DNA from: Nostoc linckia FACHB-104 | GTDB lineage: Bacteria; Cyanobacteriota; Cyanobacteriia; Cyanobacteriales; Nostocaceae | Direction of reading: 5' to 3' | Assembly: GCF_014696615.1 (NCBI RefSeq) | Contig: NZ_JACJQJ010000044.1 | Span: 1-64,000, forward strand | Length of the DNA: 64,000 nt | Shown here: one piece after another, positions 43,920 through 61,641 of the stretch | Position numbering within the stretch: position 1 is the stretch's first letter | How the letters are laid out: each line of letters opens with the position of its first letter | Position numbers and translations under genes: made by a program | Notes under the pieces: generated by a model | Database searches by the model: none | What the model saw: the letters and a program-made list of their open reading frames with translations, nothing else | Told to the model about the DNA's origin: nothing

Positions 43920-43954
43920 CGGGTGAACGAAAAAAACTGTGGGAAGAGAAATTT

Positions 43955-43977
43955 GTTAGCGTATTTTGCACGCTAAC
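43955..43977. repeat. Palindrome GTTAGCG-N9-CGCTAAC, copy 1 (after passenger gene)
   Basis: Exact 7-bp arms with a 9-base spacer, 45 bases beyond the passenger stop and inside the left end of the ISKra4-like element. Confidence 0.8.
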
Positions 43978-44021
43978 TAAGCTCTGACTAATATAGATGT
44001 TAACTCTGATGAAGATATGAA

Positions 44022-44423
44022 TTATTTTTGAAATCTTGCTGCTTCTTCAACTAGGTCATTGAGTCCTAGCTCTAGTGTATGAAGCACCTGGTTTAACGCT
44101 TCAATTTTTGTGCGATTTTTCATCATCTCAACTGCCTTTAAGAAAGCTGGACTACCTGCTTTACCAATATATTGATGACAACTTTTACTACCATTTTTGG
44201 TAACAAAAATAGGTTCAGACGATTGCCACTTGTAATACCAATAAGCTCCGCCCTTACCTTTAGCGCGGTAACGAACAATCCAACAACTCTCTTCAGCTAC
44301 ATCACTCTTGCTAAGAGTAGAGATTTCTTGGTTGATTTCTTCTCTTTTGGCAATTAAAAGTTCTATTCTGTGTGCTAAATCTGAAAGACTCTGTTCTCTT
44401 GTTTTGACCACTATTAAATACAA
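44022..44423 (-). CDS. IS passenger protein (homolog of 60943-61344)
   Basis: 133 aa. A coiled-coil N-terminus (LAHRIELLIAKREEINQEIS), a beta-rich middle (CWIVRYRAKGKGGAYWYYKW; SSEPIFVTKNG), YIGKAGSPAFLKAVEMM, NRTKIEAL and a final amphipathic helix. The Tn5-like element's passenger aligns over nearly its full length, and the C-terminal domain of the 20984-21661 protein is also related. It lies downstream of the transposase, separated by a palindrome. Function unknown; DNA or RNA binding to the palindromes is a reasonable hypothesis. Confidence 0.7.
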   Translation of the reverse strand: MYLIVVKTREQSLSDLAHRIELLIAKREEINQEISTLSKSDVAEESCWIVRYRAKGKGGAYWYYKWQSSEPIFVTKNGSKSCHQYIGKAGSPAFLKAVEMMKNRTKIEALNQVLHTLELGLNDLVEEAARFQK

Positions 44424-44438
44424 GCTTAAAAGTCCAAG

Positions 44439-44461
44439 GTTAGCGTAAATCTTACGCTAAC
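44439..44461. repeat. Palindrome GTTAGCG-N9-CGCTAAC, copy 2 (between genes)
   Basis: Arms extend to 10 bp (GTTAGCGTAA/TTACGCTAAC) around ATC. It overlaps the transposase stop codon and lies just upstream of the passenger start. Confidence 0.8.
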
Positions 44462-45744
44462 TTACTTTGATTGTAAGATAAGGATGACCAAAAATTTGAC
44501 CATCGCGTTGAATTACTTAAATATGCTGCCCTGAGAGCCATAACTCCTTCTGCACCAAAAAAAGACCAGTGCATACCAGCCTGTTTTAATCTTTGAGTAA
44601 CCACACGCCGATTGGAACTTTCAACAACTCCTGAACCAATCATTAAACCTGCTTTTAAATAAGACCGATAATCAATTCGACTTTGATTATTAGTTAAATA
44701 ACGCTCTAAATCGGTAATTGCCTTAGTTAAATCTTTCTTCTTTTTGGGGAATTGATGACAATTTTCAATTACTGTAGTCCATTGTGATTTTTTCAAGATT
44801 TGTTGTTGAGTTTTCACCCAATCTTTTTGAGAATCTTCTTTATTTGGATACGCTGCTTTCGCTACTGCCCACACATATTCTGATAGATGAAAAAAGTCGA
44901 GAATTTCCACTGCGCCTGGAAATTGTTCTGATGCCATCGACCAAATCCAATGTGCGCCATCACCAATGAATACAGTTTTTGTAGGTTTTTGACCTGCTAC
45001 TTGATTATATAAATGGGATACTCTATCCCTAAATTCCCTGCGTGATTTTAAAGTAGCTACATATTCCCTTTGCCGTATCATACCTCTTTTTTTACCAACT
45101 TTCTGATGGTCTTTATTCCAAAAAATTACACCAACTTTTGCTTCTTTATATCCTTGTTTTTGATTCAAGGGAGTCATGACTCCATCAACTCCCACATATA
45201 ATAAATCTACTGGCTCTGACTCGGAATTATCTCCTGACAACTGTGAACTTAAATCAATATCACATTCAACTTGAAATTCTTGGCTTTGTAGTTGATTTCC
45301 TACCTTTTCTACTTGATTAGCTAAGGTTTTTTGTGTCAAATTTAGCGTTGTCCATTTTTGAAACAACGAGTGAGAATTCGGAAATTCACTACTGACTCCC
45401 AAGGCGCAGGCTAATTCTAATACCATTGGTAGCCATTTATCTTTTGGTAGCCCTAATTCTTCATCAACTTTGACCTTAATACCATCTTCTGTGACATAAG
45501 CTCTACGTACAAGAACCATTTCACCTAATGGGGTGTAATATCTTTTCTCTCGTTTAGTTCTCGGATGGTCATATTCGGCTTCTTTTTCTTCAATTAAGCC
45601 TTGAAATAAGCTTTGTTGCACCTCGTTCCCTAATTTTAGCCACATACCATAGAATTCGCTCACAAATCCTTCTAAATGGTGACACTCCGGTAAGTTGAAG
45701 AGTGTGTCACTGATGTGAGACAGAATTGATTGGAGGTTGTTCAT
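44452..45744 (-). CDS. ISKra4-like transposase
   Basis: 430 aa. The DDE pattern reads LLYVGVDGVMTPLNQK (first Asp), KTVFIGDGAHWIWSMA (second Asp) and IGSGVVESSNRRVVTQRLKQ with the Glu; ILDFFHLSEYVWAVAKA and GMHW complete the ISKra4-type signature. It is intact. Palindromes stand 33 bases before its start and across its stop. Confidence 0.85.
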   Translation of the reverse strand: MNNLQSILSHISDTLFNLPECHHLEGFVSEFYGMWLKLGNEVQQSLFQGLIEEKEAEYDHPRTKREKRYYTPLGEMVLVRRAYVTEDGIKVKVDEELGLPKDKWLPMVLELACALGVSSEFPNSHSLFQKWTTLNLTQKTLANQVEKVGNQLQSQEFQVECDIDLSSQLSGDNSESEPVDLLYVGVDGVMTPLNQKQGYKEAKVGVIFWNKDHQKVGKKRGMIRQREYVATLKSRREFRDRVSHLYNQVAGQKPTKTVFIGDGAHWIWSMASEQFPGAVEILDFFHLSEYVWAVAKAAYPNKEDSQKDWVKTQQQILKKSQWTTVIENCHQFPKKKKDLTKAITDLERYLTNNQSRIDYRSYLKAGLMIGSGVVESSNRRVVTQRLKQAGMHWSFFGAEGVMALRAAYLSNSTRWSNFWSSLSYNQSKLA

Positions 45745-45776
45745 GGGTCGTTTGGTGGCATGGCATCAAGAGTTAT

Positions 45777-45799
45777 GTTAGCGTATTTTCTCCGCTAAC
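45777..45799. repeat. Palindrome GTTAGCG-N9-CGCTAAC, copy 3 (before transposase)
   Basis: Exact 7-bp arms, 9-base spacer, between the element end and the transposase start. Confidence 0.8.
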
Positions 45800-45828
45800 T
45801 ACTCTCCCACACCTTTTTTCGTTCACCC

Positions 45829-46313
45829 TTGCTTCGGTAGTGGACGAAACCATTGCTGTCAAATATCTCTTGTTGCCATAGAAGCTGCTGTAGGGAGCAG
45901 CAATTGCTAGGTGAAACAAAAGGCTTTCCTTGGCGAATAACACTACCATTGCGGATGACATCGCGGCGGCGCTGCTGTCTTACTATGCTATATCGAATAT
46001 TGGGATGTTGTTTAAAGTACTGCCGCATTGAGGCAACAAATTCAGGAGCTATGCTGTTGTCATCGTCCAGGTATGAAACAATGTCACCACCAGCTGCATC
46101 TAGTCCCAAGTTACGGGCGTAGCACAAGCCAAAGCCACTGTAAGGGTCAGGGTGTTCCATTTCAATGTAGATGATAGGGAAATCAGCTTTTGCCCTAATG
46201 CTGGTGATAATATCTCTAGTATCAGGATTAGCGCCATCATTGATGACGAGCCATTCAAAATTGTGGTCAGTTTGACTTTGAATGCTTGGCAGTGCAGTAG
46301 ATGCAAGCTGCAT
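45829..46313 (-). pseudogene. Family 2 glycosyltransferase, truncated at both ends
   Basis: SIQSQTDHNFEWLVINDGA, CYARNLGLDAAGGDIVSYLDD with the D-x-D-like DDD, and FDSNGFVHYR are GT-A family 2 features. The usual N-terminal strand before SIQSQT is missing, and the sequence there runs into a heptamer repeat. The C-terminus is replaced by the ISKra4-like end after HYRSK. Confidence 0.75.
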
Positions 46314-46317
46314 AGGT

Positions 46318-46345
46318 CTATTGTCTATTGTCTATTGTCTATTGT
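46318..46345. repeat. Heptamer tandem repeat (STRR type)
   Basis: CTATTGT repeated about 3.5 times directly upstream of the glycosyltransferase remnant. Short tandem heptamers of this type are a hallmark of heterocystous cyanobacteria. Confidence 0.75.
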
Positions 46346-46451
46346 ATGTTGCAGTGATGATTGATAATTTCAAAGCTCCATACCTCTATCATTTTTTTCT
46401 TTAGCGAAGGTATAGCTCAAGTAATACTTTTAATAATATCTAAAAACCACT

Positions 46452-46865
46452 ATGGCAACTTTAAATCAACAACAGCAGGCTGAATTAATTATCCAACAAG
46501 CTTGCACGGAAAATTTTACTGAGAGCGAGAAAGCTATTTACGATGACTTTATTCTGGAAGCGGGGGTAAAAAACCCAGCTAAGATGACTGAGGCTACTGC
46601 TGATGCTTTGATTAGATACCTTAATGGCTGCGAAGCATCTAACGAGTTTGTTGCTAATGTAGTAAATCGCCTCGCGCAAGTTGCCCCTGCTCACATCATG
46701 ACCAGGATTCTTCTCAGCGATAATGACGGTGATGGTGTGCCTTTATATGAGGAATTAAAACTTGGAACAAAGGTTACGGAATTTGATACCTCTTTTGAAA
46801 TAGCGGCTGCAAGACAAAGGCAATATCAATTTTCTCCAACTCAGAATTGCGATATGGAGTTGTAA
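46452..46865 (+). CDS. Small EF-hand-like protein
   Basis: 137 aa, starting with a Gln-rich helix and containing LSDNDGDGVPLYEEL, which fits the D-x-D-x-D-G-x6-E calcium loop of EF-hand or dockerin-like motifs. Otherwise helical, without signal peptide or known family. Stand-alone gene after AT-rich sequence. Confidence 0.55.
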   Translation: MATLNQQQQAELIIQQACTENFTESEKAIYDDFILEAGVKNPAKMTEATADALIRYLNGCEASNEFVANVVNRLAQVAPAHIMTRILLSDNDGDGVPLYEELKLGTKVTEFDTSFEIAAARQRQYQFSPTQNCDMEL

Positions 46866-47465
46866 GTATAACTTGAACATTATTAGGAATTTTTATTGAA
46901 AATATAGATAATACATTTTGAAGTGCGGAATGTGGGTTCAACTCTACATTCTGACCCCGACTGCGATCGCATGATTGCACTGCGCTCCTCGCAAAAACAC
47001 CGTTTTGGCGATCGCCCCACCAGAGCTTTGAGTGATAATATCCCAACAACTCGTGTTGAAGAAAAAGAAACCTCTATGGTTACGCTTAGTTTTTAAACTA
47101 AACTGTTTAGTTTGGATTTGGTGACAGCTTCGCCATCTCTATCCCCAACCTGATAAAAGCGGAGCAGTACCGTACTGCGATCGCATTGACTGCTTAGAGG
47201 AATTGCCACTAATTTCGGTAAATTCTCTAGTAATTTGGCAATGGCTGAGAAAAAAGTTTAGAGCTTGCGTAAAAAATTCCTCCTCACACCGTAATCCTAC
47301 TAGAAGGCAATTTTCAGGGGTTCAACATGAACGTATCTAAGCAGTGGGGACTAAAGGCGATCGCACTATCGAGATTAGCATGTTTAAGTATTTTTACAGA
47401 GAAAAATCATCATGATATTGTGATTTCAGTCGCAATTATCTGAAAATCTCACTTTTTGACTTCCA
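46866..47465. other. 600-bp gap without a recognised gene
   Basis: Contains at least three HIP1 sites (near 46963, 47009 and 47178) and an AT-rich dyad TTTAAACTAAACTGTTTAGT near 47092. The last 100 bases probably hold the promoter of the protease gene. Confidence 0.4.
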
Positions 47466-47495
47466 ATGGGGAATTTACGAACTAAATCTAAAGCG

Positions 47496-48680
47496 ATGAT
47501 GAACAAGCGATTCTCGAAATTAGGAATTTTAACACTATATACCGTTTTTGCTCTAACGGGTATAAATACCGTCGAGCAAGTACTATCGCTGAACGGAGGG
47601 GAAGCAGGTTACTCTAACCGTGTTTTCGCTCAAACTGCTGAAGAACAACTTAACCGGAGAGTATACCAAAAAGCTAGCCCAGCAGTGGTGACAGTAAAAA
47701 CAGAAATGGGTCATGGAAGCGGTTTTGTTATTAGTCAGGATGGGTTGATTCTTACTAATGCTCATGTAATCAAACCACCACCACGACTACAACCAAAAAA
47801 TGAAGAAGAGGCAGAATATGCCAGAACCTATAACCCTACTGAATTTCCTCAAGTAGTGACAGTGGTTTTCGCTGATGGGAGAAAATTTAGTGCAGATGTG
47901 ATGGGTTTTGGTAAGGGTGGTTTAGATTTAGCAATCCTGAAAATTCATGGACAAAAAAACTTGCGTACCCTTGCTTTAGCTGCTCCTGGTAGCACAAAAG
48001 TGGGCGATCGCGTTTTTGCTCTTGGTACTCCTCTGGATGCAAAATTTGAGGGTACATTTACCCAAGGTAATATTACCCGCATTAACCCTAGTGATGGAGA
48101 AATTCAACACAATGCTGTGATTATGGGGGGTAATTCCGGTGGTCCCCTGCTCAACTCCCAAGGTCAAGTCATTGGTGTGAATACATCGGGGATTGGGGAG
48201 TTAAATACTGGGATGAATTTTTCTATTCCTGTCTCCCAGGTACAGTCTTTTATCGTTGCAGCGAGAAAAAAAGATGTTTCTCCAGTTTCTACCCTATTTA
48301 CACGAACTCAAGAACCATCGATTCGGACAATTACACTCAATGGTCAAGTAATTAATGGCAGTTTGAGTAAGGGCGATCGCACTCTCGAAGATCGCAGTTT
48401 TGCTGATTTTTACCAATTTCAAGGTAAGAAAGGTCAGCAGGTCGTGATTGAAATGACGAGTCAGAAGATTAACCCAGTTCTAAGTTTATTTCAAGTTATT
48501 GAGTCTACTGAAGGTCAGCAACTTGTGAAAATAGCAGAAAACGATGACAGAGGACCAGGTGATTTTAATGCTCAAATTACAACGGCTTTACCAGCAGATG
48601 GAGTTTTTATCATCATAGCTAATTCCCTCGACAGGGGTGAAACTGGAGATTATAGCTTACGGGCAAATGCTCAACCTTAA
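47496..48680 (+). CDS. Secreted trypsin-like (HtrA-type) serine protease with PPC-like C-terminus
   Basis: 394 aa from the ATG at 47496; an ATG at 47466 adds ten residues. The signal peptide (KRFSKLGILTLYTVFALTG) ends around VFAQT. The catalytic triad, numbered from 47466, is H100 (LTNAHV), D154 (GLDLAIL) and S224 (GGNSGGP), the order of S1C/HtrA proteases. There is no PDZ domain; instead the C-terminal ~110 residues (RSFADFYQFQGKKGQQVVIE; DGVFIIIANSLDRGETGDYS) resemble bacterial pre-peptidase (PPC) beta-sandwiches. It is the first of a same-strand trio with the COP23 and protease/TPR genes. Confidence 0.85.
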   Translation: MMNKRFSKLGILTLYTVFALTGINTVEQVLSLNGGEAGYSNRVFAQTAEEQLNRRVYQKASPAVVTVKTEMGHGSGFVISQDGLILTNAHVIKPPPRLQPKNEEEAEYARTYNPTEFPQVVTVVFADGRKFSADVMGFGKGGLDLAILKIHGQKNLRTLALAAPGSTKVGDRVFALGTPLDAKFEGTFTQGNITRINPSDGEIQHNAVIMGGNSGGPLLNSQGQVIGVNTSGIGELNTGMNFSIPVSQVQSFIVAARKKDVSPVSTLFTRTQEPSIRTITLNGQVINGSLSKGDRTLEDRSFADFYQFQGKKGQQVVIEMTSQKINPVLSLFQVIESTEGQQLVKIAENDDRGPGDFNAQITTALPADGVFIIIANSLDRGETGDYSLRANAQP

Positions 48681-48754
48681 ATGACTAATTTAGGTCATTA
48701 TTATCGGTTTTTTTTATTACATCATCAATCTTAATTTCTTGAAGGATTAAAACT

Positions 48755-49336
48755 ATGCAACGTCAACTATCTTCCATTGCTTTAGCACTCACCACCTTCA
48801 CTTCATTTGCAACATTGACTGTTAGTATCTCTCCAGCTTTGAGTCAGTCTGTTTCTACTAATTCACAACCAGATAAAGTCACTTTTTACTGCCGGGAAAT
48901 ATTTGATAAAGCAAGCGGAGAAAAAATTCCTGCAACAGTTGCTTGGGTTCCCGAACGGAAAGGTCATATCAGTCTAATTGGTTGGAAATCACAAGTTTTT
49001 CCTCGCAATTTCAGTCCTCAAAAAAGGTGTGAATTAGTCACTCAAAAGTTTCAACAGTTTTATGATAATGGTGGCTTAAATTATCTGACTCACGGAATCA
49101 ATAATGGCTATCCAGTAATTTGCAGTATTCCCAATCAAGGCGAAACTTGTAATGGGACAAATCAACTATTTACTATTAGACCTGGTAGTAATCCTACGAT
49201 AGTTTTGCAGAGGCTTATCGATACATTAGTAGGAGGAGGAGGAGATGGAATACTCTATCAAAACTCCGGTCAGCAGGTATATATTGACATGAAAGAGTAT
49301 TTCAAACAAGCTCCTGTGGAAAATATCCCTAGCTAG
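48755..49336 (+). CDS. COP23-domain exported protein
   Basis: 193 aa with a signal peptide (LSSIALALTTFTSFATLTV, cut near ALSQS). The body matches the COP23 pattern: VTFYCREIFDKASGEKIPAT, RGH-type KGHISLIGW, RCELVTQKFQQFYDNGG, YPVICSIPNQGETCNGTN and a final VLQRLIDTL. COP23 proteins are membrane-associated or exported cyanobacterial proteins, often encoded next to trypsin-like proteases, as here on both sides. Biochemical role unknown. Confidence 0.8.
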   Translation: MQRQLSSIALALTTFTSFATLTVSISPALSQSVSTNSQPDKVTFYCREIFDKASGEKIPATVAWVPERKGHISLIGWKSQVFPRNFSPQKRCELVTQKFQQFYDNGGLNYLTHGINNGYPVICSIPNQGETCNGTNQLFTIRPGSNPTIVLQRLIDTLVGGGGDGILYQNSGQQVYIDMKEYFKQAPVENIPS

Positions 49337-49417
49337 TTACCTGATATGTAGAGACGCGATATATCGCGTCTGATTCTCTTTTCAAGTATCCTCAGATTTT
49401 CTTCATAATTCCTCAAC

Positions 49418-52400
49418 ATGAACATGAATAAAAACATCGCTATAATTACCTCAATTTTACTATTCCAGTCTCCTAATTTTGCTATTACACTTACTTCCAA
49501 AGCCCAAATAGTACCTCAAAATTCAAACTGCGAGATTATCCCAGAAAAGGATGCTCTCGCTGGAGAGTTTTCAGAAAAACAATTAGAAACTATCGCTAGT
49601 CGCATTACAGTCAAAGTGATTGGCGATGATAATGGGGGTTCTGGTACGCTACTCGCTAAGAAAGGAAATACATATTTAGTTCTCACTAATTCCCATGTTG
49701 TCAGAGGGGTTAATTCTGTCAAGCTCAAAACGGTTGATGGGAAAACTCATACTGCACAAATTGTCCCTAATACTAAGTTTGAAAAATTTGATTTGGCATT
49801 ATTGCAATTTCAAAGCAATGAAATTTACTGCCCTAGAAATGTTGAAGATGTTGCCAATTTTCTTCCCAAGACTACAATGTCAGTGACTGCTGCGGGATTT
49901 TCTGGGGAGAAGGGAGAAATAGTATTTAGTCATGGCAAAATTCAACAAATTTCTCAACCCCTTAAGGAAGGATATCAAATTGGCTACACCAGTAATATCG
50001 AACAGGGGATGAGTGGTGGTGCAATTATTGACAGTAGCGGGATACTTGTTGGAATTAATGGACGAGGTGCTTATCCAATTTTAAATAGTGGCTATGTTTA
50101 TCAAAATGGTTTGCGTCCCAGTGAGTCAGAAATTCAGGAGATGCGAAAGTTGAGTTGGGGGATTCCGATTTCAACTGTTTTAGCTGAGGTAAATGCAGAT
50201 ATACTTACTGCCTGGTCTCTACCTTTACCTTTACCAGAAACTACAGCTAGCGTTCCAGAACCACAGTTAACTGGATGGTTAGGAGATTTAGAGCAAAAAG
50301 CTAAACAATTTACGGTTAGGATTGATAGTACAAGTAAAGATAATGGTTCTGGAGTAATTATTGCTAAAAATAAAAATGGCAATACCTACACCTACACAGT
50401 ATTAACAGCAGCCCATGTTATTTGTGAAAGGAACAAAGGAGATAATGCAACAAAACCATGCCGTGACGAAAATTATGAAATTGTTACTAATGATGGCAAA
50501 AAATATTCTGTAGATAAAAGCACGATTAAAAGAGAGGAAGGTGTTGATTTAGCGGTTGTGAAGTTTACAGCTACCAATGAAAATTATCAAGTTGCTAGTT
50601 TAGCAGACTACATTCCTGAACCAGATTCTAGTCTTAAATATGAAAATTATATGTTTACTGCTGGTTATCCCAGCATAGGAGATAAGTCACCTTGGCGATT
50701 CACTGTGGGGACAATTGCTGATAAAGATTTAGGATTATTAGTTGTTAGTGCATCAGATTTCTCAACAGTAAATCTTGGTAATTTACAAAAAGCTAATTTA
50801 TTAACTGGTGGATACGAGTTAGTTTATACAAGTATTACTGGTGGAGGAATGAGCGGAGGACCTGTTTTAGACTCGATGGGGCGAGTTATTGGCATTCATG
50901 GACGAGCAGAAGCAGAAAAAGCCTACGATGCTCAAACAGGAGAGTGTGGTAGAAACTTTGGATGTTTAACTCAAATCGGTCCTAGTTTAGGTATTCCTAT
51001 AAGAACTTTTTTGGCTATTAAGACAAGGCTGGGTGTGCAACCGCAAAAATTAGAATATACTCCAGCATTAAGATTGAATGAACAACAAGCCAACTCTATT
51101 AAAAAAATATTACAATTAACCGATGTTGCCAACTCAAATACAACATCTGTGCAATGGTTAGAAAGAGGGAATAAACTTTTACTATTAAAGCGTCATGGAG
51201 AAGCAATTCAAGCCTTTGAACAAGTAATAAAAATCAAACCATCTTTTGTTCATTTAGCTTATCTTGGAAAAGGTTGGACATTAGCAGATCAAGAAAAATA
51301 TCAAGAAGCACAGGTGGTATTTGAGCAAGCTATTCGTTATAAACCTGATTTCGCTACTGCTTGGAAATTTCAAAGTTATGTGTATATCGGTTTAAAACAA
51401 TGGGATAAAGCATTAGTAGCAATAGAAAAAACAATTCAACTTCAACCCAATAATCCAAGTATTCATCTTTTTAAAGGGATAGTACTACTAAATTTACAAA
51501 AGTATGCAGAAGCAAGCACAGTGATCGGCGAGGTTATAAAATCTCATCCTAGTGCATTAGCTTACCGTACTCTTGCAGAATTATACAAAGCACAGAATAA
51601 ACCAGATTTAGCTCTGGCTAATTATAACAAAGCTATTGAAATTAATCCTAAATCAGTAGATGCTTACACTTTACGTGGGTCATTTTACGCTTCACAACAA
51701 AAATTAGATTTAGCTCTGGCTGATTTTAAAACAGCCATTGAACTCAATCCTAAATCAGTAGATGCTTATGCTTATCGTGGACTTTCTTACTTCTTCCAAC
51801 AGAAATGGGATTTAGCTCTACCTGAAATTAACAAGTATATTGAATTCAATCCTACATTTGTTGAGGTATATATTGTTAGAGCGCAATTGTACACCAATCA
51901 GCAAAAATTAGATTTGGCTTTAGCTGATTATAATAAAATTATTGAACTTAATCCCAAATATGCTGCTATATATGGAAAACGAGGATTTTTATATGGACAG
52001 CAGCAAAAAGTGGATTTAGCTCTGGCTGATTTTAAAACAGCCATTGAACTCAATCCTAAATCAGTAAATGCTTATGTTTATCGTGGACTTTCTTACTTAT
52101 TACAACAGAAATGGGATTTAGCTCTACCTGAAATTAACAAATATATTGAATTCAATCCTACATTTGTTGATGCTTATTTTATTAGAGCGGGATTATACAC
52201 CAATCAGCAAAGATTAGATTTGGCTCTGGCTGATTATAATACAATTATTAAACTTAATCCCAAGGAGGCTACTTATTACAACAATCGAGGTCTTTTTTAC
52301 AAAGACCAGAAAAAATGGGATTTAGCACTAACTGATTACAACAAAGCTATTGATATTAATCCTCAGTATGCTAATGCTTACAACAATCGGGGTGTTGTTT

Positions 52401-53242: not shown

Positions 53243-53288
53243 AAATTTGGGATTGGTGTAAACATTTCCTACATCCAATCCCATTTAC

Positions 53289-54209: not shown

Positions 54210-54310
54210 TAGTTACGCAACTTGTATATTATCTTAAGTTCGTAGTAAGGACTAAAGTCCTTATTTTGAGTAGTGAGGACTGAAGTTATCACTACAAATA
54301 AAAAATAAAT

Positions 54311-57300
54311 TTAACGATACATACTATCACAAATCCTTCTTTCATCCTCATTAAGATTAGAATTATTAGCTAAGTAATCATACAACCAATTACAACTAAG
54401 CTGTTGTAAATTATCAATATCCAAACTCCATAAAATTATATTATTTTTCATATTCACCGAAGTAAACATCTTTCCATCAGGGCTAAAACTAACATCTTTT
54501 ATTGGAGTTTCCCCCGCTTGCAAACTATTAATCAATTTCCCATCTAAACCCCAGAAATTGATATTACCACCACTGGATGAAATCAGAATTTGACTATCTG
54601 GACTAAAACCAACGCTGTAAACATTATCTCTATGGGGTATATTTCTTAATAACTTCCCAGACATATCCCAAAGCTTCACTGTTCTATCATTACCAGCAGT
54701 CGCTATCATTTTCCCATCTGGACTAAAATTAACAGATGCAATATTTTCAGTATGTCCTGATAATGTTGATAATAATTTACCATCCAGATTCCAGATTTTA
54801 ACTGCTTTATCAACAGCAGCTACTACAGTTTTCCCATCTGGACTAAAGTTAATACTGGTCATAATTTGATTATCAACTTGCCAATTGTGCAACACATTAC
54901 CTGACAAATCCCACAATTTAACTTGTTTATCAATCCCCCCAAGACTAACTAGAGATTTACCATCTGGACTAAAACTAATATCCTTGATATGAGCAAAGAC
55001 AGGGCTACTATTATTACTCTCATGTCCCTGCCAACTTTTGATTAATTTACCTTCTAAATTCCAAAGTTTAATTTGATTGTCATTTCCGACAGAAACAATT
55101 ACTTTTCCATCTGGACTAAAATGCACCTTAATAATTTCTTTTTCATGTGCTTTAAAACTTCTGATTAAACCTCCATCTTTTTGTCGCAAAGTAATGATAC
55201 CTTGTTGATTTCCCATCACGATAATTTTGCTGTCGGGACTGACACTAACACTGTTTCCCTCAAAACTCGGTAAAATTCCATCCAAACGCCACAGTTTGAC
55301 AGCCTTATCAGCACTTGCAGTGGCTAAAGTTTGTCCATCTGGACTAAAACTCACTTCCGATGCTTTACCCCCATGTCCTTTAAAAGTATAAATTTCTTGT
55401 CTTCCTTGAGTACTCCAAACTCTGACTGTATCATCAGCACCAGCAGAAGCTAATAATTTACCATCCCGACTAAAGCGCACATCTAAAACTTCATTTGTAT
55501 GACCTTTAAGCTCATATACTTGACCTAAATTATTTAAACTTAAACTATAATTACTTAAACTAATAGTGTTATCTTTACTTGCAGAAGCTAATAATTTCCC
55601 ATCTGAGCTAAATGCAACACTCAAAACCTCATCTCTATGACTTTTTAGAGTTTTTAACACTTCTCCTTCTAGATTCCAAAGTTTAACTGTCTTGTCAGCA
55701 GAAGCAGTGGCTAAAGTTTTACCATCTGGACTAAAATTCAAGCTCCATATTTTGGCATTATGTGCCTGAATTTCTTTAAGTTCTTCACCCTTTAATGTTT
55801 GTAGTTTAACTTGACCACTTTGATATCCAGTAGCAAGAATCTGGTTATTAGGGCTTAACGCAAATGACCTTATTATTTTAGTATCAGTTTCAGTATCTGT
55901 AACGGTTAAAAAAGGATGTTCCTCAAATAAATTGCTTTGAGAATTATATCTCCAGAAAGTAATAGTATTATCAAAGCTGGCAGCAATGAGATACTTTCCA
56001 TCACTACTAAAAGTAACACTGAAAACTCCTTGCTTATGTCCTGTTAATGTTTGTACTAACTTTCCATCTCGTTGCCAAATTTTAATTTTACCATCTTGGC
56101 TTGCTGAGGCTAAAAGCTGACCATTTGGGCTATAATTAACGCTAGTAACTGTACCTTTATGTCCTTTTAGTCCTTCTAGCTTATTATATTCTCTAATTTG
56201 ATTCAAACTTTCCAGTAGAGAAGTTAGTACCCCTATTTTAGTTTTAGTGTCTAAAGTATCTAATTTATCCAGAGATTGACTATTTTTTAGTATCGAAGTT
56301 AATCCTTCAAGATCATTCCCTGATTTGATGAGAACTTTAGCCGAAATACTCAAAGTCTTTAGTTCATTAATTTGTGCTTGCTTACGTTGATATTCAGCCT
56401 GTCGCCATTGAAATAAGGCTAACCCCGCTAATAGTAAAGCTGTGACTAAACCACCAGTTAACCAGATAAAAATACGCTTTCGTGCAGCATTTTTTACTTC
56501 TTCTTCTTTCTCCCGTAACTCCAAACTTAAATTAATAAAATTTTGTTCATCATCGCTAATTTGATGATTGCGTTTTAGTAACCAATCTTCCGCATCAATT
56601 AAAGGCTTTCCTCTTAACAATCCTCCAACATCATTATCGCTATTTTCCCACTGTTTAATTATTACCCGTAATTGCTCTTGCCAGATGCGAAAATCTCCAT
56701 CAATTCTCATCCATTGTCCGAACCTGCGCCAATTTTTAATTAACGCTTCGTGGATAATTTCCACAGTTTCAATTCCCGTAATTTGATTATAATTTGTCAC
56801 TACCAACCGCGCATTTGCTAACCGAGTAACTAAATCCCAATTTTCGTCTTTTACTTCCCCACGAGTTGCCAAACGACGAATATCTGTACTTGCTTCTCTC
56901 GGTTGTACTAACTGAATAAATATTTCTTGTACCCTGTCTTTATCTGTTGTATTTAATTGAGCATAAATTTCTTCCGCATGGTTTGCTAATGCAGTTTCCA
57001 CACCACCAATTTCTGTATATGCTTGATGAGTTAAATATCCCTGATATTGTTTTTGCCACAACTGAGTTAAAGTAAATTCCAGCAGAGGTAAATGATTGGG
57101 AGATTGTAAAACAGCATTAACTAAACGTTGAGTTAACCCTTCTTCTAGCTGCATATGATAAATTGCCGCAGGTTGTGTTATTACTGCTTCTAATTCTTGG
57201 GCATTCATCGCACCTAAATTGATATGAGCATCTTGCAATGCATCCGCTAATCGACGGTAGGATAAAGCCTCTCCATAAAAGTCTGCTCGTAGAGTTAAAA

Positions 57301-59011
57301 TTAAAGTAAAACTGGGAGCTTTATCAACTGCATTTAGAAGATTATCTAAAAATATTTGCCTTTCTTCAGTATGATGATAAAGAGTATAAAGTTCTTCAAA
57401 TTGGTCAGCAATGAGAACTAAATGGGTTCTAGGCGCATCTTGAATAAATGTTTCAATAGCATTAAATAACCCTAAATCACTCGCTTTTATATCTACTTCT
57501 AATTCTAATTCCGCTAATTTTTGTTGATGAGAATCTTCAAACTCAATTTCCCCATCTCCTGTTTCCATAGGAGAATTAGGTAAATTTATCACCTCTGTTT
57601 CTGTGGTTAAATCGTTTCCAGAAGGATTAACCTTGGTTAATATGGAACCAAACGCGATCGCTAAAGACTCAAATGGATTATTTCCCGGACGGAAAGATAT
57701 AATCTGCCAATCCCTATTTCTATCTTGTTTTAATTGCGGAATCAGCCCTGCAAACACAACCGAAGACTTACCACTACCAGAAGCACCAACAACCGCAATC
57801 AAAGGTTTTTGCTTCACCGCATTAACTAACTGGTATGTGATAGCTTCCCGTCCAAAAAAGTAAGGTGCATCCTCCTCTCGGAACGCAGCTAAACCACGAT
57901 AGGGACAATTCGCAATTGCCCCCAAACTCTGCCAAGTAGGAGGTGTTTCTAATAGATTTTGGACAATCACAGGTAGCCAACTAGCACAGGGATAATCTTT
58001 CTCGAACCCCTGTAATTTTTTACGAGCAATATTTACCGATTGATAGAGGGATTTTCCTCCAGTAAACTCTTGAAAAAGGTATTTCAAAAACTGATTTGCT
58101 ACCTTATCCGGTACAGGTTCCCGCATCACAATTATTTGCGGAATATACAAACTTTCTAACTCGCTGGCAATTCCTAAACCATCGCAAGAATTAAAAAAAG
58201 CTAACTGTAAACCCTGCCTAACTGCCGTTTTTAACCCCTCCCGCAAATCCTGCATTGTTAAACTATCATTGCGGTTGAGAAATATCCTTCCTTGGCTTTC
58301 CTCCGTTCGACTATGCCCAGAAAAAAAGAGAATATCCCAGCCTCTTTCATCCCAAAGATACTCATTCAATTCTGACGGTGAAGGTTCAACTAAAACAACT
58401 AACTCTGCATTTTTACAGTATTGCTTTAACAATTTCTCATCATCAGCAACATTAATCCCATCACTATTCCCCAAAATAATCAAAATTCTCATATTGGGGC
58501 GATATTTTCGGGTAAAACGTTGAGATGTATTAGAACTTAAGGCTATCTCTGCATAAGGATAATGCTCAAATAAATCCCATAAATGCCAAGGAAGCTTCCG
58601 TAATTGATTATCGGTAGTGCGAATAATAAACCGCACCTCATCATCAGGAGACAAATGGATTAAACATTGCTCCTTAATCAAACGAAATGAGTCAGCTTGC
58701 AACCAACTAAGAAAATTCTGCTTGATAGTATCAGCTAATTGCTCACATTCATCCTTAAGAGATTTAAACCTAACATTAGAAATCTGCTCTTTTTTCGGTT
58801 TAATCCGGTGTCCATCCAAGCTGCGATAACTTCTGCACCAGCGTTGATATATCTCAGGTAGGGTAGGGATAGGAGGTAATCTTAATTGGTTGTCACTCAG
58901 TTCAACAAAAGGAGGCAAACCATCCTCACCGATTTCCAAACTAACACGAACCCCCTCACCCAACTGACCATCCAGCTTGAGGACAACCAACTTTTTCATC
59001 GTCGTCACCAC
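54311..59011 (-). CDS. CHAT protease-nSTAND ATPase-WD40 protein
   Basis: 1566 aa. Residues ~130-350 are a CHAT (caspase-like) domain with H233 (FFSGHS) and C276 (FFNSCDG). NCPYRGLAAFREEDAPYFFG (368-387) opens an nSTAND1 ATPase with Walker A GASGSGKSS (409-417) and LIADQFEEL as Walker B. A predicted membrane helix (LTGGLVTALLLAGLALF) lies near 850. From ~930 to ~1540 there are about 14 WD40 repeats (VNFSPDGKMIATAG-type). Known relatives are signalling switches in which the WD40 sensor triggers oligomerisation and protease activation. Here trypsin-like protease genes lie on both sides. The trigger is unknown. Confidence 0.88.
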   Translation of the reverse strand: MVTTMKKLVVLKLDGQLGEGVRVSLEIGEDGLPPFVELSDNQLRLPPIPTLPEIYQRWCRSYRSLDGHRIKPKKEQISNVRFKSLKDECEQLADTIKQNFLSWLQADSFRLIKEQCLIHLSPDDEVRFIIRTTDNQLRKLPWHLWDLFEHYPYAEIALSSNTSQRFTRKYRPNMRILIILGNSDGINVADDEKLLKQYCKNAELVVLVEPSPSELNEYLWDERGWDILFFSGHSRTEESQGRIFLNRNDSLTMQDLREGLKTAVRQGLQLAFFNSCDGLGIASELESLYIPQIIVMREPVPDKVANQFLKYLFQEFTGGKSLYQSVNIARKKLQGFEKDYPCASWLPVIVQNLLETPPTWQSLGAIANCPYRGLAAFREEDAPYFFGREAITYQLVNAVKQKPLIAVVGASGSGKSSVVFAGLIPQLKQDRNRDWQIISFRPGNNPFESLAIAFGSILTKVNPSGNDLTTETEVINLPNSPMETGDGEIEFEDSHQQKLAELELEVDIKASDLGLFNAIETFIQDAPRTHLVLIADQFEELYTLYHHTEERQIFLDNLLNAVDKAPSFTLILTLRADFYGEALSYRRLADALQDAHINLGAMNAQELEAVITQPAAIYHMQLEEGLTQRLVNAVLQSPNHLPLLEFTLTQLWQKQYQGYLTHQAYTEIGGVETALANHAEEIYAQLNTTDKDRVQEIFIQLVQPREASTDIRRLATRGEVKDENWDLVTRLANARLVVTNYNQITGIETVEIIHEALIKNWRRFGQWMRIDGDFRIWQEQLRVIIKQWENSDNDVGGLLRGKPLIDAEDWLLKRNHQISDDEQNFINLSLELREKEEEVKNAARKRIFIWLTGGLVTALLLAGLALFQWRQAEYQRKQAQINELKTLSISAKVLIKSGNDLEGLTSILKNSQSLDKLDTLDTKTKIGVLTSLLESLNQIREYNKLEGLKGHKGTVTSVNYSPNGQLLASASQDGKIKIWQRDGKLVQTLTGHKQGVFSVTFSSDGKYLIAASFDNTITFWRYNSQSNLFEEHPFLTVTDTETDTKIIRSFALSPNNQILATGYQSGQVKLQTLKGEELKEIQAHNAKIWSLNFSPDGKTLATASADKTVKLWNLEGEVLKTLKSHRDEVLSVAFSSDGKLLASASKDNTISLSNYSLSLNNLGQVYELKGHTNEVLDVRFSRDGKLLASAGADDTVRVWSTQGRQEIYTFKGHGGKASEVSFSPDGQTLATASADKAVKLWRLDGILPSFEGNSVSVSPDSKIIVMGNQQGIITLRQKDGGLIRSFKAHEKEIIKVHFSPDGKVIVSVGNDNQIKLWNLEGKLIKSWQGHESNNSSPVFAHIKDISFSPDGKSLVSLGGIDKQVKLWDLSGNVLHNWQVDNQIMTSINFSPDGKTVVAAVDKAVKIWNLDGKLLSTLSGHTENIASVNFSPDGKMIATAGNDRTVKLWDMSGKLLRNIPHRDNVYSVGFSPDSQILISSSGGNINFWGLDGKLINSLQAGETPIKDVSFSPDGKMFTSVNMKNNIILWSLDIDNLQQLSCNWLYDYLANNSNLNEDERRICDSMYR

Positions 59012-59105
59012 TCCTACCCGGAAAAATACTTACACTTAGACTGCGGCTCACTTGCTAGTATTTTACGCAAATTCATGAATTTGTTACATAAATTTACTAA
59101 AAATC

Positions 59106-59310
59106 CTATTCCATATAAACAGCAATTTCTCCCCCATTATCCGATTCCCCAACACATCCCATACCAGTAGCAGTGAAATCGCAACGCATAGATGTATTCC
59201 AACGTGCAATAACCGAATTACCTTCCTGTAAAGCTATTTGTCTGACTCGAAATTCCTCCCCATTGGCAATATTAGTCAGTTGGTAAGGAGAAAGCATGAG
59301 GATCATACAA
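59106..59310 (-). pseudogene. Small secreted protein, 3' half (split by IS4 element)
   Basis: Encodes ILMLSPYQLTNIANGEEFRV and SMRCDFTATGMGCVGESDNG to the stop at 59106. It joins in frame with the 61408-61641 fragment after removing the element and one 10-bp target copy. Confidence 0.8.
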
Positions 59311-59338
59311 CTGACTTTTCACGGGATGTGGAAAAGGG

Positions 59339-59371
59339 AATTGGTTCGCGATAGCTTGTCGCGAACCAATT
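59339..59371. repeat. Palindrome GGTTCGCGA-N7-TCGCGAACC, copy 1 (before transposase)
   Basis: Arms extend to 13 bp (AATTGGTTCGCGA and complement) around TAGCTTG, 62-68 bases upstream of the transposase start. Confidence 0.85.
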
Positions 59372-59438
59372 CTTTGAACTTAAGACGATTTGCGTCCTCT
59401 AATATAAGGTGCTTGTAGTGTAGTATTTTGGGGTGCAA

Positions 59439-60860
59439 ATGAAACTATTAGAAGCGAACCCGTACCGCAATTGTGATTTTGGTGACAAACGTCTAACCAA
59501 CAGAGCAGTGTTAATTGCGGAGGCTTTAAAAGTAAAATATGGTGAACCTCTATCACAAATATTTCAAAGCGCTAGTGACCTAAAACGTGGTTACGAATTC
59601 TTTTCTAACCCCAAAACAACCTTTGAGAAATTGACCCAACCATCTTTTAAACAGACTTCTAAGCAGATTTATGGCCTACCAATAGTATTAGCTGTAGGTG
59701 ATACAACTTATCTTGATTACAAAAAAATCAAAGAAAAAAGAGATGATTATGGGCCTACAGGTAATGGTGGGAACGGACTAATTTTACATAGTTCTTTAGC
59801 ACTAGACCCAGACTTTGGTCAGCCACTAGGACTATTATGGGAGAAATTGTGGCATCGACAACACAAAGCATTTCCACCAGCAGGGGAAACATCTACGGCA
59901 AAAAAGAAGCGGTTAAAAAAAGAACGTTTAATCGCCAAGAATAGAGCTTTTAAAGAGAAAGAATCTTATCGATGGGTTGAAGCTTTTCAAAAAGTAAACA
60001 AATTATTTAAGGGTTTAGAAATGCCTGATGGTGGACTAATCACAAGAGTGATTCATGTCTTTGACCGTGAAGGAGATATTGCAGAAGTATTCGCACTTCA
60101 ACGTAAAAATAAAAATACAGGTGTACTTGTCAGAGCCGCTCACAATCGTTGTTTATCGGGAGAAAACTCTTATTTATGGGAGTATGTAACATCCCAATCA
60201 GTGCAGTTTATCAAAGAGGTTGAATTACCTGAAACTAAAAAGCGCTCTAAAAGAACTGCAACATTAGAAATCAGGTATTGTCCAGTCTCAATAAATCCTC
60301 CATCTCGGTTAAAAAAATCAGGCAATTTTAACGTTTACGCGCTCTTTGCAACAGAGATTAATGTGCCAGACGGATGTGAGCCAGTTACGTGGATGCTACT
60401 GACAAGTGAGTTAGTTTCGATACGACAAGAGGCGGAACAAATTCTGCGATGGTATACGTATCGCTGGCGGATAGAAGAGTATCACAAAATACTAAAATCT
60501 GGCTGTAAAGCGGAAAGTTACCGCTTGGCAGGGGAGAGTATGTCAACAATGTTAGGTTTTTTAACAGTGATTGCGGCACAATTACTGCGAATGACTTATT
60601 TACATCGGAATTCTCCGCACAGTTCGGCAGAATTAGTGTTAACAAAAATACAAATGGATGTGTTACTTGCTAATACTCCACCCAAACAAAAAAAGCTCCT
60701 AGAGCTTACAATTGATTGGGCAATTAGAGCAATTGCACGTCTTGGGGGATACTTAGAACATCGGAAGCATAGCCCGATTGGGATACAAGTTTTGTGGCGA
60801 GGCTGGTTGGAATTAGAAACTTTATGCCAAGGTTGGTTGCTGCATAAAAATCTAAAATGA
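59439..60860 (+). CDS. IS4-family (Tn5-like) transposase
   Basis: 473 aa from the ATG at 59439; a GTG two codons earlier is possible. N-terminal CDFGDKRLTNRAVLIAEAL and LKRGYEFFSNPKTTFEKL are the Tn5-type DNA-binding part. The catalytic core has VLAVGDTTYLDY (first Asp), VIHVFDREGDIAEVF (second Asp) and YTYRWRIEEYHKILKSG with the catalytic Glu, and ends with a dimerisation-type C-terminus. Intact. Confidence 0.92.
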   Translation: MKLLEANPYRNCDFGDKRLTNRAVLIAEALKVKYGEPLSQIFQSASDLKRGYEFFSNPKTTFEKLTQPSFKQTSKQIYGLPIVLAVGDTTYLDYKKIKEKRDDYGPTGNGGNGLILHSSLALDPDFGQPLGLLWEKLWHRQHKAFPPAGETSTAKKKRLKKERLIAKNRAFKEKESYRWVEAFQKVNKLFKGLEMPDGGLITRVIHVFDREGDIAEVFALQRKNKNTGVLVRAAHNRCLSGENSYLWEYVTSQSVQFIKEVELPETKKRSKRTATLEIRYCPVSINPPSRLKKSGNFNVYALFATEINVPDGCEPVTWMLLTSELVSIRQEAEQILRWYTYRWRIEEYHKILKSGCKAESYRLAGESMSTMLGFLTVIAAQLLRMTYLHRNSPHSSAELVLTKIQMDVLLANTPPKQKKLLELTIDWAIRAIARLGGYLEHRKHSPIGIQVLWRGWLELETLCQGWLLHKNLK

Positions 60861-60901
60861 ATATTTGATTTTAGTTACTCAACAAAGTTATAGAGGAATA
60901 T

Positions 60902-60926
60902 GGTTCGCGACAACGTATCGCGAATC
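60902..60926. repeat. Palindrome GGTTCGCGA-N7-TCGCGAATC, copy 2 (between genes)
   Basis: Same 9-7-9 layout with one mismatch in the right arm, 42 bases after the transposase stop and 17 bases before the passenger start. Confidence 0.85.
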
Positions 60927-60942
60927 GTGGAATGTTGATTTT

Positions 60943-61344
60943 ATGTCGAAAGACCGAAAAACTATAGTCCAAGAGGATTTACAATCGCGTATAGACAAAG
61001 TTATCGACATGTTGGAGCGTCTTGAATTTGAAGTCGCTGCCATACACAATTCAATGCCTGTTGCGCCACCTAGTTGTAGAATATCTCGTTACCTAGCAAA
61101 GGGGCGTAAAGAATTTTATTGGTACTATAAACTACATGCTACAACACCAATATTTCCAACTCGGAGTGATGGCAAGCTTTCCAAGTACAAGCATTTAGGT
61201 AAGGCTGGTAGTCAAGCCTACATAGATGCCATTGAACAAATTACTGCCAGGACTAAAATTGAAGCTTTAGATCGTTCAATCGAGACTCTCAAACAGGGTT
61301 TAAAAGATTTAGTCGAAGAAACTTCCAAATATAATAAACAATAG
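60943..61344 (+). CDS. IS passenger protein (homolog of 44022-44423)
   Basis: 133 aa from the ATG at 60943; the frame is open upstream but crosses the palindrome. Coiled-coil start (LQSRIDKVIDMLERLEFEVA), CRISRYLAKGRKEFYWYYKL, a short IFPTRSDG segment, HLGKAGSQAYIDAIEQI, ARTKIEAL and a C-terminal helix GLKDLVEETSKY. The match to the ISKra4-like element's passenger covers nearly the whole protein, though the transposases are unrelated. Likely an accessory protein that helps or restrains transposition or binds the palindromes; this is inference. Confidence 0.72.
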   Translation: MSKDRKTIVQEDLQSRIDKVIDMLERLEFEVAAIHNSMPVAPPSCRISRYLAKGRKEFYWYYKLHATTPIFPTRSDGKLSKYKHLGKAGSQAYIDAIEQITARTKIEALDRSIETLKQGLKDLVEETSKYNKQ

Positions 61345-61346
61345 CA

Positions 61347-61377
61347 AGTGGTTCGCGATAATCTATCGCGAACCACT
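61347..61377. repeat. Palindrome GGTTCGCGA-N7-TCGCGAACC, copy 3 (after passenger)
   Basis: 14-bp arms AGTGGTTCGCGATA and complement around ATC, starting three bases after the passenger stop. Confidence 0.85.
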
Positions 61378-61407
61378 CTTTCTTTTCCACATCCCGTGAA
61401 AAGTCAG

Positions 61408-61641
61408 GATCATACAAGCGTCCTCACTGCATAATTTAATATTGGTACTAGCATCATCAAAAGCTCCCATAACTGCATAATCACATTCATGTCTTTCACC
61501 TTCAATCACGACAGCACAAGTTGAAGGATAAAGGGTTTGATGATTAGTAAAATTAACGGTATTTTCTGCTAGTGAAGGATTTGCGTTAAGGGTTAATAAA
61601 CCAACGGAAGTTAACACAGATGCCGTGATTTTTTTCAACAT
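61408..61641 (-). pseudogene. Small secreted protein, 5' half (split by IS4 element)
   Basis: MLKKITASVLTSVGLLTLNA is a signal peptide (cut after LAEN region). Mature part has four Cys (CAVVIEGERHECDY; IKLCSEDACMI). With the 59106 half, the uninterrupted protein would be about 142 aa with six Cys; no family recognised. It probably belonged to the protease/COP23 region. Confidence 0.8.

What the first reader, a model, noticed from the sequence alone, without database searches (positions are those of the whole stretch)
43921..61407. Two unrelated insertion sequences share a passenger gene and an identical three-palindrome layout
Seen: the ISKra4-like element (43921-45828) and the Tn5-like IS4 element (59311-61407) each have transposase then a homologous ~133-aa passenger. 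Each has three palindromes placed before the transposase, between the genes and after the passenger. The palindromes differ by element (GTTAGCG-N9-CGCTAAC versus GGTTCGCGA-N7-TCGCGAACC) yet keep fixed spacing inside each. Inference: passenger and palindrome form a matched module, exchanged between transposon families, that controls transposition, transcript insulation or self/non-self recognition.
Basis: partly seen in the sequence, partly recalled or inferred. Interest (0 to 1): 0.87.

Follow-up and report, generated by a model that had tools for sequence, protein, structure and literature searches.

The report
Portable regulator module in cyanobacterial transposons
Several unrelated families of jumping genes in cyanobacteria carry the same small companion gene together with short mirror-image DNA sites that very probably are where its protein binds, so an entire control module, sites included, seems to have been passed between transposons.

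Summary
Both elements carry homologous passengers (45% identity) and three 23-bp dyads, GTTAGCG-N9-CGCTAAC in the ISKra4 element and GTTCGCG-N9-CGCGAAC in the Tn5-like one. In cyanobacterial genomes the passenger occurs with seven transposase groups (one presumed), usually with cognate dyads: P2 and P3 flank it, P1 lies at the other end in six groups; the IS701-like group has only two. Dyads follow the passenger, not the transposase: none of 33 passengerless transposase loci carries two, against 26 of 29 with a passenger (copies of one element included). Three IS1182 elements with 77-84% identical transposases lack both. Residue 85/84 goes with half-site base 4 (Tyr with A, His with C), in two independent switches. 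Ten of 17 standalone homologs have a palindrome across the -10 box of a strong promoter. AlphaFold predicts helix, three-stranded sheet, helix (pLDDT 92). Best reading: a DNA-binding dimer that represses its own, perhaps also the transposase, promoter and binds sites near the element ends. Matched DNA recognition is well supported by inference; repression is likely; the effect on transposition is open, and P3 may also act as a terminator. No Pfam or NCBIfam family fits. Fold comparison never ran.

The parts
43921..43944 (+). terminal inverted repeat, passenger-side end of the ISKra4 element
   Evidence: I1
43955..43977 (.). dyad P3, GTTAGCG-N9-CGCTAAC, 10 bp inside the terminal repeat; terminator-like on the - strand
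44022..44423 (-). passenger gene, 133 aa, predicted DNA-binding regulator with Tyr85
44439..44461 (.). dyad P2, between transposase and passenger
44452..45744 (-). ISKra4-family transposase; its 3' end overlaps P2
45777..45799 (.). dyad P1, upstream of the transposase
45805..45828 (+). terminal inverted repeat, transposase-side end of the ISKra4 element
   Evidence: I1
59301..59310 (+). left copy of 10-bp target duplication GATCATACAA
59311..59336 (+). left terminal inverted repeat of the Tn5-like element
   Evidence: I2
59344..59366 (.). dyad P1, GTTCGCG-N9-CGCGAAC
59433..60860 (+). IS4 (Tn5-like) transposase
60903..60925 (.). dyad P2, one arm changed (GTTCGCG / ATTCGCG)
60943..61344 (+). passenger gene from its likely ATG, predicted DNA-binding regulator with His84
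61351..61373 (.). dyad P3; terminator-like on both strands
61382..61407 (+). right terminal inverted repeat of the Tn5-like element
   Evidence: I2
61408..61417 (+). right copy of the 10-bp target duplication
20984..21661 (-). distant standalone homolog, 225 aa, no cognate dyad found; not part of an element

Best explanation
The passenger is a small dimeric DNA-binding regulator. Each 23-bp dyad is two inverted half-sites, one read by each subunit with residues of a three-stranded beta-sheet. At P2, the intergenic region, it represses its own gene and, where the genes diverge, probably the transposase too. P3 and usually P1 lie near the terminal repeats, so bound protein would sit beside the transposase binding site and tune end use or copy number. 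Half-site and protein specificity change together, so cohabiting elements such as the two in this window would be controlled separately. The whole module, gene plus sites, has moved between transposase families. Shown by sequence: module association, passengerless controls, covariation, operator position in standalone relatives, predicted fold. Inferred: dimer binding, repression. Conjecture: the effect at the ends.
For: Shared dyad before and after the passenger at 0-1 mismatches in 53 of 100 loci, against 0 of 300 shuffles. Outer length exactly 23 bp in 173 of 185 sites. Two or more strict sites in 26 of 29 passenger-bearing transposase loci against 0 of 33 passengerless ones (loci of one call can be copies of one element). 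IS1182 with and without the module. Residue/base covariation: 80 of 82 loci before one manual reassignment, two independent switches on well-supported branches, a pattern seen in 2 of 523 clade pairs. Inverted repeat straddling the -10 of a strong promoter in 10 of 17 standalone homologs, against 3 of 170 shuffles. AlphaFold model puts Lys65 and Tyr85 in strands 2 and 3 and Gly56 at the end of strand 1.
Against: No binding, repression or transposition was measured. Only two independent His/Tyr switches exist, too few for the sign test. Held-out locus L279 (Tyr with T) and standalone L260 (Tyr with G) break the rule. IS701-like elements lack P1 in 10 of 10, and their P3 is about 75 bp from the tip in the nine loci inspected. 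In DUF6399 elements P1 was not found in 4 of 9. 13 of 100 loci show no dyad of the class, 7 of them standalone. In four ISKra4 relatives P2 is 17 bp. In the window itself the consensus scan finds no promoter at P1 or P2; the looser score at P2 exceeds P1 and P3 in ISKra4 elements but not in Tn5-like ones. P3 is terminator-like in both window elements. G.T pairs outnumber A.C 41 to 27 over positions 1-9 (my sum). Fold search never ran.
Confidence: 0.72

Rival explanations
1. The passenger is mainly a positive transposition factor that holds the two ends together or recruits the transposase; the P2 site is only feedback.
For: P1 and P3 lie near both terminal repeats in six transposase groups. 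The better end site is more symmetric than P2 in 34 elements against 8, 24 ties, p 7e-5. P1 lies at the far end even where transposase and passenger diverge.
Against: IS701-like elements lack P1. Passengerless IS1182 and Tn5-like relatives exist, e.g. L228, whose genome holds 11 transposase matches, so those transposases do without the factor. Standalone homologs look like autorepressors.
Confidence: 0.3
2. The palindromes act as RNA hairpins: bound by the passenger, or ending and insulating transcripts.
For: They can fold. P3 scores as terminator-like in both window elements, and ISKra4 P2 on the antisense strand; the scans found 6 and 5 such sites against 1.2 and 1.7 in shuffles. P2 of the ISKra4 relatives and of the Tn5-like type keeps a G.U pair in the sense strand. 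G.T mismatches outnumber A.C 41 to 27.
Against: In 10 of 17 standalone homologs the palindrome spans the -10 box, so its left arm is not transcribed from that promoter. Position 5 has 24 T.C or G.A arm mismatches and no G.T. In 3 of 3 IS4_1 elements with P1 the asymmetric P1 is inverted relative to P2 and P3. A terminator needs no matched protein, so it would not explain the covariation.
Confidence: 0.12
3. The dyads belong to the transposase or a host factor, and the passenger is an unrelated hitchhiker.
For: P1 and P3 sit near the terminal repeats.
Against: Same dyad class with seven transposase groups; absent from passengerless relatives with the same transposase; covariation with the passenger.
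Confidence: 0.04
4. P2-passenger-P3 is itself a small recombination cassette and the palindromes are its recombination sites.
For: P2 and P3 flank the passenger in all seven groups, and the passenger changes transposase family about 8-9 times on the tree.
Against: P1 lies outside such a cassette; standalone relatives use the palindrome as an operator; no recombinase family match.
Confidence: 0.05

Closest known systems
VANC anti-silencing proteins of Arabidopsis VANDAL transposons
   Same: Transposon-encoded protein that binds specific motifs in noncoding parts of its own element; related proteins and their target motifs diversify (PMC5735166, abstract and section headings seen)
   Different: Eukaryotic; causes loss of DNA methylation; targets often form tandem repeats; homology to VANC was not tested. 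Here two or three 23-bp dyads per element, and the module is shared by unrelated transposases
TnpA of plant En/Spm (CACTA) transposons (recalled, no call)
   Same: Small element-encoded protein that binds subterminal sites at both ends and represses the element promoter
   Different: Different sites and host; not shared between unrelated transposases as far as I recall
Tn3-family TnpR resolvase acting at res (recalled, no call)
   Same: Element-encoded DNA-binding protein acting between divergent genes and repressing both
   Different: Here no recombinase family match, and sites also lie near the element ends
Extra genes of unknown function in ISKra4 elements (PMC3942029, passages seen)
   Different: No palindromes, cross-family sharing or mechanism in the passages seen
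Toxin-antitoxin pairs within Tn3 transposons (PMC7157771, title and start of abstract in a search listing)
   Same: Passenger module proposed to be integral to transposition
   Different: Unrelated proteins; no toxin partner seen here

Membership tests
ISKra4 insertion sequences (43921-45828) | transposase matches the curated family model above cut-off | tested here: met
   NF033572, 289 bits against 205
ISKra4 insertion sequences (43921-45828) | terminal inverted repeats | tested here: met
   24 nt, 92%
ISKra4 insertion sequences (43921-45828) | target-site duplication | tested here: inconclusive
   none visible for the single window copy; relatives L035 and L161 show apparent 9-bp duplications
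IS4 family, Tn5-like (59311-61407) | transposase matches the curated model and has the Tn5-type domains | tested here: met
   NF033590, 328 bits against 160; Tnp_DNA_bind and DDE_Tnp_1 above cut-off, Dimer_Tnp_Tn5 below it
IS4 family, Tn5-like (59311-61407) | terminal repeats and short target duplication | tested here: met
   26-nt perfect repeats; 10-bp duplication
Any named protein family for the passenger | match above a curated cut-off | tested here: not met
   Pfam and NCBIfam for both window passengers, Pfam for 25 members. PHROGs failed on a coordinate error and was not repeated; PADLOC not run
AP2-like / integrase arm-type DNA-binding domains (idea from recall) | three-stranded sheet followed by a helix | tested here: met
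   AlphaFold model, strands 47-56, 59-68, 83-87 and helix 92-132
AP2-like / integrase arm-type DNA-binding domains (idea from recall) | sequence profile match | tested here: not met
   no such family among the 25 of 31 matched Pfam families shown, at E up to 1
AP2-like / integrase arm-type DNA-binding domains (idea from recall) | structural match to solved members | not tested
   Foldseek busy; VIA-align not available
Element-encoded autorepressor | palindromic operator over the promoter of its own gene | tested here: inconclusive
   met by 10 of 17 standalone homologs; for element passengers the promoter evidence is weak, and the window scan finds none at P1 or P2
Element-encoded autorepressor | repression of its own promoter | not testable with these tools
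   needs an experiment
VANC-like anti-silencing | removal of silencing | not testable with these tools
   needs an experiment

The most novel reading that the evidence does not exclude
A self-recognition module for transposons: a tiny DNA-binding protein plus dyads placed between the genes and near the ends, which unrelated DDE transposases can adopt. Each lineage drifts to a private half-site by one residue/base switch, so many elements can coexist in one genome, each counting and restraining, or helping, only its own copies. This would be a bacterial counterpart of plant VANC systems, shared across at least six or seven unrelated transposase groups.
Probability: 0.4. Interest if true: 0.9.

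Novelty: new variant of a known kind. Interest (0 to 1): 0.78.

Why it matters
Bacterial insertion sequences are usually thought to be controlled by their own transposase, by RNA or by the host (general knowledge, recalled). A transposase-independent regulator that travels with its binding sites between unrelated transposons would be a general control system, and it comes with a testable one-residue specificity switch. It would give a role to an unnamed protein family with members in 103 of 388 sampled genomes of the order and 85 matches in one genome. It would also allow direct tests of how elements tell themselves apart, and may yield a compact new DNA-reading domain.

Tried and rejected
RNA hairpin reading: disfavoured by standalone operators over the -10 box, arm mismatches that are not wobble pairs, and inverted P1 in 3 of 3 IS4_1 elements.

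Terminator or insulator reading: I first judged by eye that no T-run follows the window dyads. The scan made on rechecking shows P3 terminator-like in both elements, so this is kept as a rival or a second role; I raised it from 0.10 to 0.12 and lowered the main reading from 0.75 to 0.72.

Transposase or host site: rejected by passengerless controls.

Viral contigs: 8 pattern matches, no relative. Solved structures by sequence: the best match, E 2.8e-5, is a coiled-coil region of PspA; the others are E 0.13 or worse and look like coiled coils or designs. Fold comparison: never ran. PHROGs for the passenger: failed. PADLOC: not run.

A first exact-arm palindrome search missed imperfect sites and was replaced by a half-site search with mismatches. 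Label error: L162 is called IS1182 but is an IS701-like element next to an IS1182 gene. The IS1182 label rests on that neighbour gene; L140, L142 and L170 were put with it by BLAST, and L140 has matching Pfam domains. Rows dropped before counts: of 126 HMM hits, those with a domain under 80 aa, too little flank or duplicate flanks, leaving 100; those under 100 aa for the tree, leaving 97; loci without a reliable half-site, leaving 82; standalone rows, leaving 90.

Literature: seven searches aimed at the module in held open-access papers listed no description of it; two more were on VANC and on the fold. Subscription papers and ISfinder were not searched.
Full report
CHECK. The two elements are as described. 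The ISKra4 element lies at 43921-45828 and the Tn5-like IS4 element at 59311-61407, the latter with a 10-bp target duplication. Their passengers are 45% identical over 121 aa, E 1e-33. Each element has three 23-bp dyads: GTTAGCG-N9-CGCTAAC in the first, GTTCGCG-N9-CGCGAAC in the second (middle copy with one changed arm). In the whole genome the pattern GTTMKCG-N9-CGMKAAC occurs 9 times, against 1 for the reversed control. Five are in the window, two in a third copy on C29, and two on C153, both beside the Tn5-like terminal repeat.

HOW WIDESPREAD. tblastn found the passenger in 44 of 72,556 plasmid records, all listed with cyanobacterial names. Profile searches found the family in 103 of 388 genomes of the order and 24 of 386 of the phylum sample (23 of 386 with the two-sequence profile), in 16 of 50 and 13 of 27 genomes of two families, plus 22 loci in named genomes. 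These counts include standalone homologs. The viral contigs gave none. One genome holds 85 matches.

DO DYADS GO WITH THE PASSENGER? For 100 non-redundant loci I asked for a 7-nt half-site that forms a palindrome both before and after the passenger. 53 have one with 0-1 mismatches in all and 70 with up to 2; of 300 shuffles none reached 0-1 and 5 reached 2. With a stricter class (TT at 2-3, A or C at 4, G or T at 5; 22-24 bp) both sites are found in 66, only P3 in 18, only P2 in 3 and none in 13 of 100, and a site in 12 of 200 shuffled windows; 7 of the 13 are standalone homologs. A scan of the surroundings of the 70 loci gave 185 sites against 0.03 per shuffled region, and 173 of 185 are exactly 23 bp. 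Layout of the 70: three sites in 40, P2 and P3 only in 26, other in 4. Some of the 26 are cut by contig ends, and the P1 of L065 looks like the end of a neighbouring copy.

SEVEN TRANSPOSASE GROUPS. Neighbouring genes were clustered by BLAST and representatives identified: ISKra4, Tn5-like IS4, IS4_1, IS1182, NF041680, an IS701-like group below the curated cut-offs, and a group of about 530 aa that matches only DUF6399 and is presumed to be a transposase because it lies between terminal repeats. In ISKra4 (one exception, L136) and Tn5-like elements the passenger follows the transposase; in the others the genes diverge. There P1 lies beyond the 3' end of the transposase, so P1 is an end feature. 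Of 41 elements with P1 and P3, 38 have inverted repeats of at least 16 nt outside them; the exceptions are L065, L134 and L177. The outer dyad edge lies 33-35 bp from the end of that repeat in Tn5-like, 29-51 in ISKra4, 34-48 in IS1182, 48-52 in IS4_1, 21-28 in NF041680 and 47-61 in DUF6399 elements. Counterexamples: no P1 in 10 of 10 IS701-like elements and in 4 of 9 DUF6399 elements. In nine IS701-like loci inspected (seven of those ten, plus L158 and L162) the dyad P3 starts about 75 bp from the tip (my count).

CONTROLS. Transposase loci with a passenger carry at least two strict dyads in 26 of 29: ISKra4 16 of 16, Tn5-like 5 of 6, DUF6399 5 of 6, IS1182 0 of 1 (L301, the element of L140, where the laxer scan finds three). 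Without a passenger 0 of 33 do: Tn5-like 0 of 15, IS1182 0 of 17, DUF6399 0 of 1; a single site occurs in 2 of 15 Tn5-like loci. Full length was judged by coverage of the query for ISKra4 and Tn5-like and by locus length for the others; each search returned at most 30 loci, and several are copies of one element in one genome, so the loci are not independent. Truncated loci: with passenger 6 of 7, without passenger 2 of 24, these two being L190 and L196 from one place, an ISKra4 remnant that keeps dyads where no passenger was detected. The cleanest comparison is IS1182: three elements with transposases 77-84% identical to that of L140 and the same kind of terminal repeats are 1.85-1.90 kb and have neither passenger nor dyads, while L140 and L142 are 2.3-2.5 kb with a dyad beside both terminal repeats. 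Gene and sites come and go together.

MATCHED SPECIFICITY. Half-sites differ mainly at base 4 (C or A), base 5 (G or T), base 7 (G or T) and base 1 (G or A). Among 82 loci the best-correlated protein columns are column 79 with base 4 (His-C 66, Tyr-A 14, His-A 1, Asp-C 1), column 58 with base 7 (Lys-G 67, Gln-T 11, others 4) and column 49 with base 1 (Gly-G 53, Gln-A 20, others 9). The His-A case is L156, whose automatic P2 was a chance site, so I reassigned it by eye; the Asp case, L046, looks decayed. On a tree built without these columns the residue and the base each change twice and together, on well-supported branches; two events are too few for the sign test. Columns 58 and 49 rest on one or two residue changes, and base 1 changes five times. 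Of 523 pairs of disjoint, partly nested clades only 2 share a residue found nowhere else, one of them the Tyr at column 79 in the two GTTAGCG clades, the larger of which includes two rows without a reliable half-site. In element-type loci not used for this, 11 of 12 with a dyad and a readable key residue fit; L279 (Tyr with T, broken frame) does not, and L281/L282 are copies of an element already used (dyads read by me). Among standalone homologs with an operator, 7 of 10 have GTTAG half-sites with Tyr; L260 has GTTGT, and L266 and L285 another motif. In the window proteins the columns are Gly56/Gly54, Lys65/Lys63 and Tyr85/His84.

DNA OR RNA? Distant homologs that stand alone give the best answer. 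I took 17 upstream regions, those of new loci with the Tyr motif plus L085, leaving out L088, L091, L184 and the relaxase-side group. In 10 of 17 an inverted repeat straddles the -10 box of a strong promoter just upstream of the gene, against 3 of 170 shuffles; several come from related genomes. An example is L267, TTGACT-N18-TATAAT with GTTAGTGC and GCACTAAC on either side. The left arm cannot be in the transcript from that promoter, so the site must work as DNA. The half-site is of the GTTAG kind seen in the ISKra4 element. In one ISKra4 subgroup the P2 centre reads TATAAT in 9 of 13 (my reading). Position 5 shows 24 T.C or G.A arm mismatches and no G.T, as expected if each half-site tolerates G or T, and in 3 of 3 IS4_1 elements with P1 the asymmetric P1 is inverted relative to P2 and P3. 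Against this: G.T is commoner than A.C over positions 1-9 (41 to 27, my sum); the window scan finds no consensus promoter at P1 or P2; and P3 is terminator-like in both window elements, on the gene strand in ISKra4 and on both strands in the Tn5-like one. P3 may therefore also end transcripts.

FOLD. AlphaFold with 25 sequences gives pLDDT 92.2 and pTM 0.77: helix 9-38, strands 47-56, 59-68, 83-87, helix 92-132. The three specificity columns lie in strands 2 and 3 and at the end of strand 1. A sheet with a YWYYK strand and a following helix recalls sheet-type DNA readers such as AP2 or integrase arm domains; this is recall, not a test, because fold search never ran. Pfam and NCBIfam have no match above cut-off.

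MECHANISM. Shown by sequence: dyads, module, controls, covariation, operator position in relatives. Inferred: a dimer binds the dyad; P2 gives autorepression and, where genes diverge, control of both. Conjecture: P1 and P3 let it restrain or help end synapsis. The better end site is more symmetric than P2 in 34 elements against 8, 24 ties, suggesting the ends are filled first, though P2 may be constrained by promoter needs.

EXCHANGE. On the passenger tree the transposase family changes at least 9 times among 7 groups, or 8 if the wrong label of L162 is corrected (my count), so the module has moved repeatedly. The tree rests on only 131 columns.

NOVELTY. Held papers show ISKra4 elements with extra genes of unknown function (PMC3942029, passages) and the plant VANC analogue (PMC5735166, abstract and headings). 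Seven literature searches aimed at this module listed no account of it.

Noticed in passing
window 20984-21661 (-): A distant 225-aa homolog of the passenger; its upstream neighbour clusters with a relaxase-like protein (below curated cut-offs) also next to relatives L180 and L183. It has His at the key column and no cognate dyad.
   Followed up: partly
L055 1589-3543 (G000:C29): A third Tn5-like copy in the same genome has an open transposase frame but a stop codon inside the passenger; all three dyads remain.
   Followed up: partly
window 59000-59310 and 61408-61641: The Tn5-like element appears to interrupt a gene for a small secreted-looking protein.
   Followed up: no
window 41954-43534 (+): Two ORFs look like pieces of another transposase-like gene next to the ISKra4 element (by eye).
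   Followed up: no
L033, L034, L035, L056: In four ISKra4 relatives P2 is 17 bp (GTTAGCATAAAGCTGAC) while P1 and P3 stay intact.
   Followed up: partly
L061, L063: Shortened IS4_1-type elements with left terminal repeats only 583 and 992 bp before the passenger: the transposase is lost or cut short but passenger and dyads are kept.
   Followed up: partly
G587: One genome holds 85 passenger matches, mostly with near-identical scores, perhaps a recent burst.
   Followed up: no
L265, L269: Standalone homologs occur as tandem pairs.
   Followed up: no
L266 and L285: Two genomes share a different operator (ATGCAGA...TCTGCAT) over the promoter of a standalone homolog.
   Followed up: no
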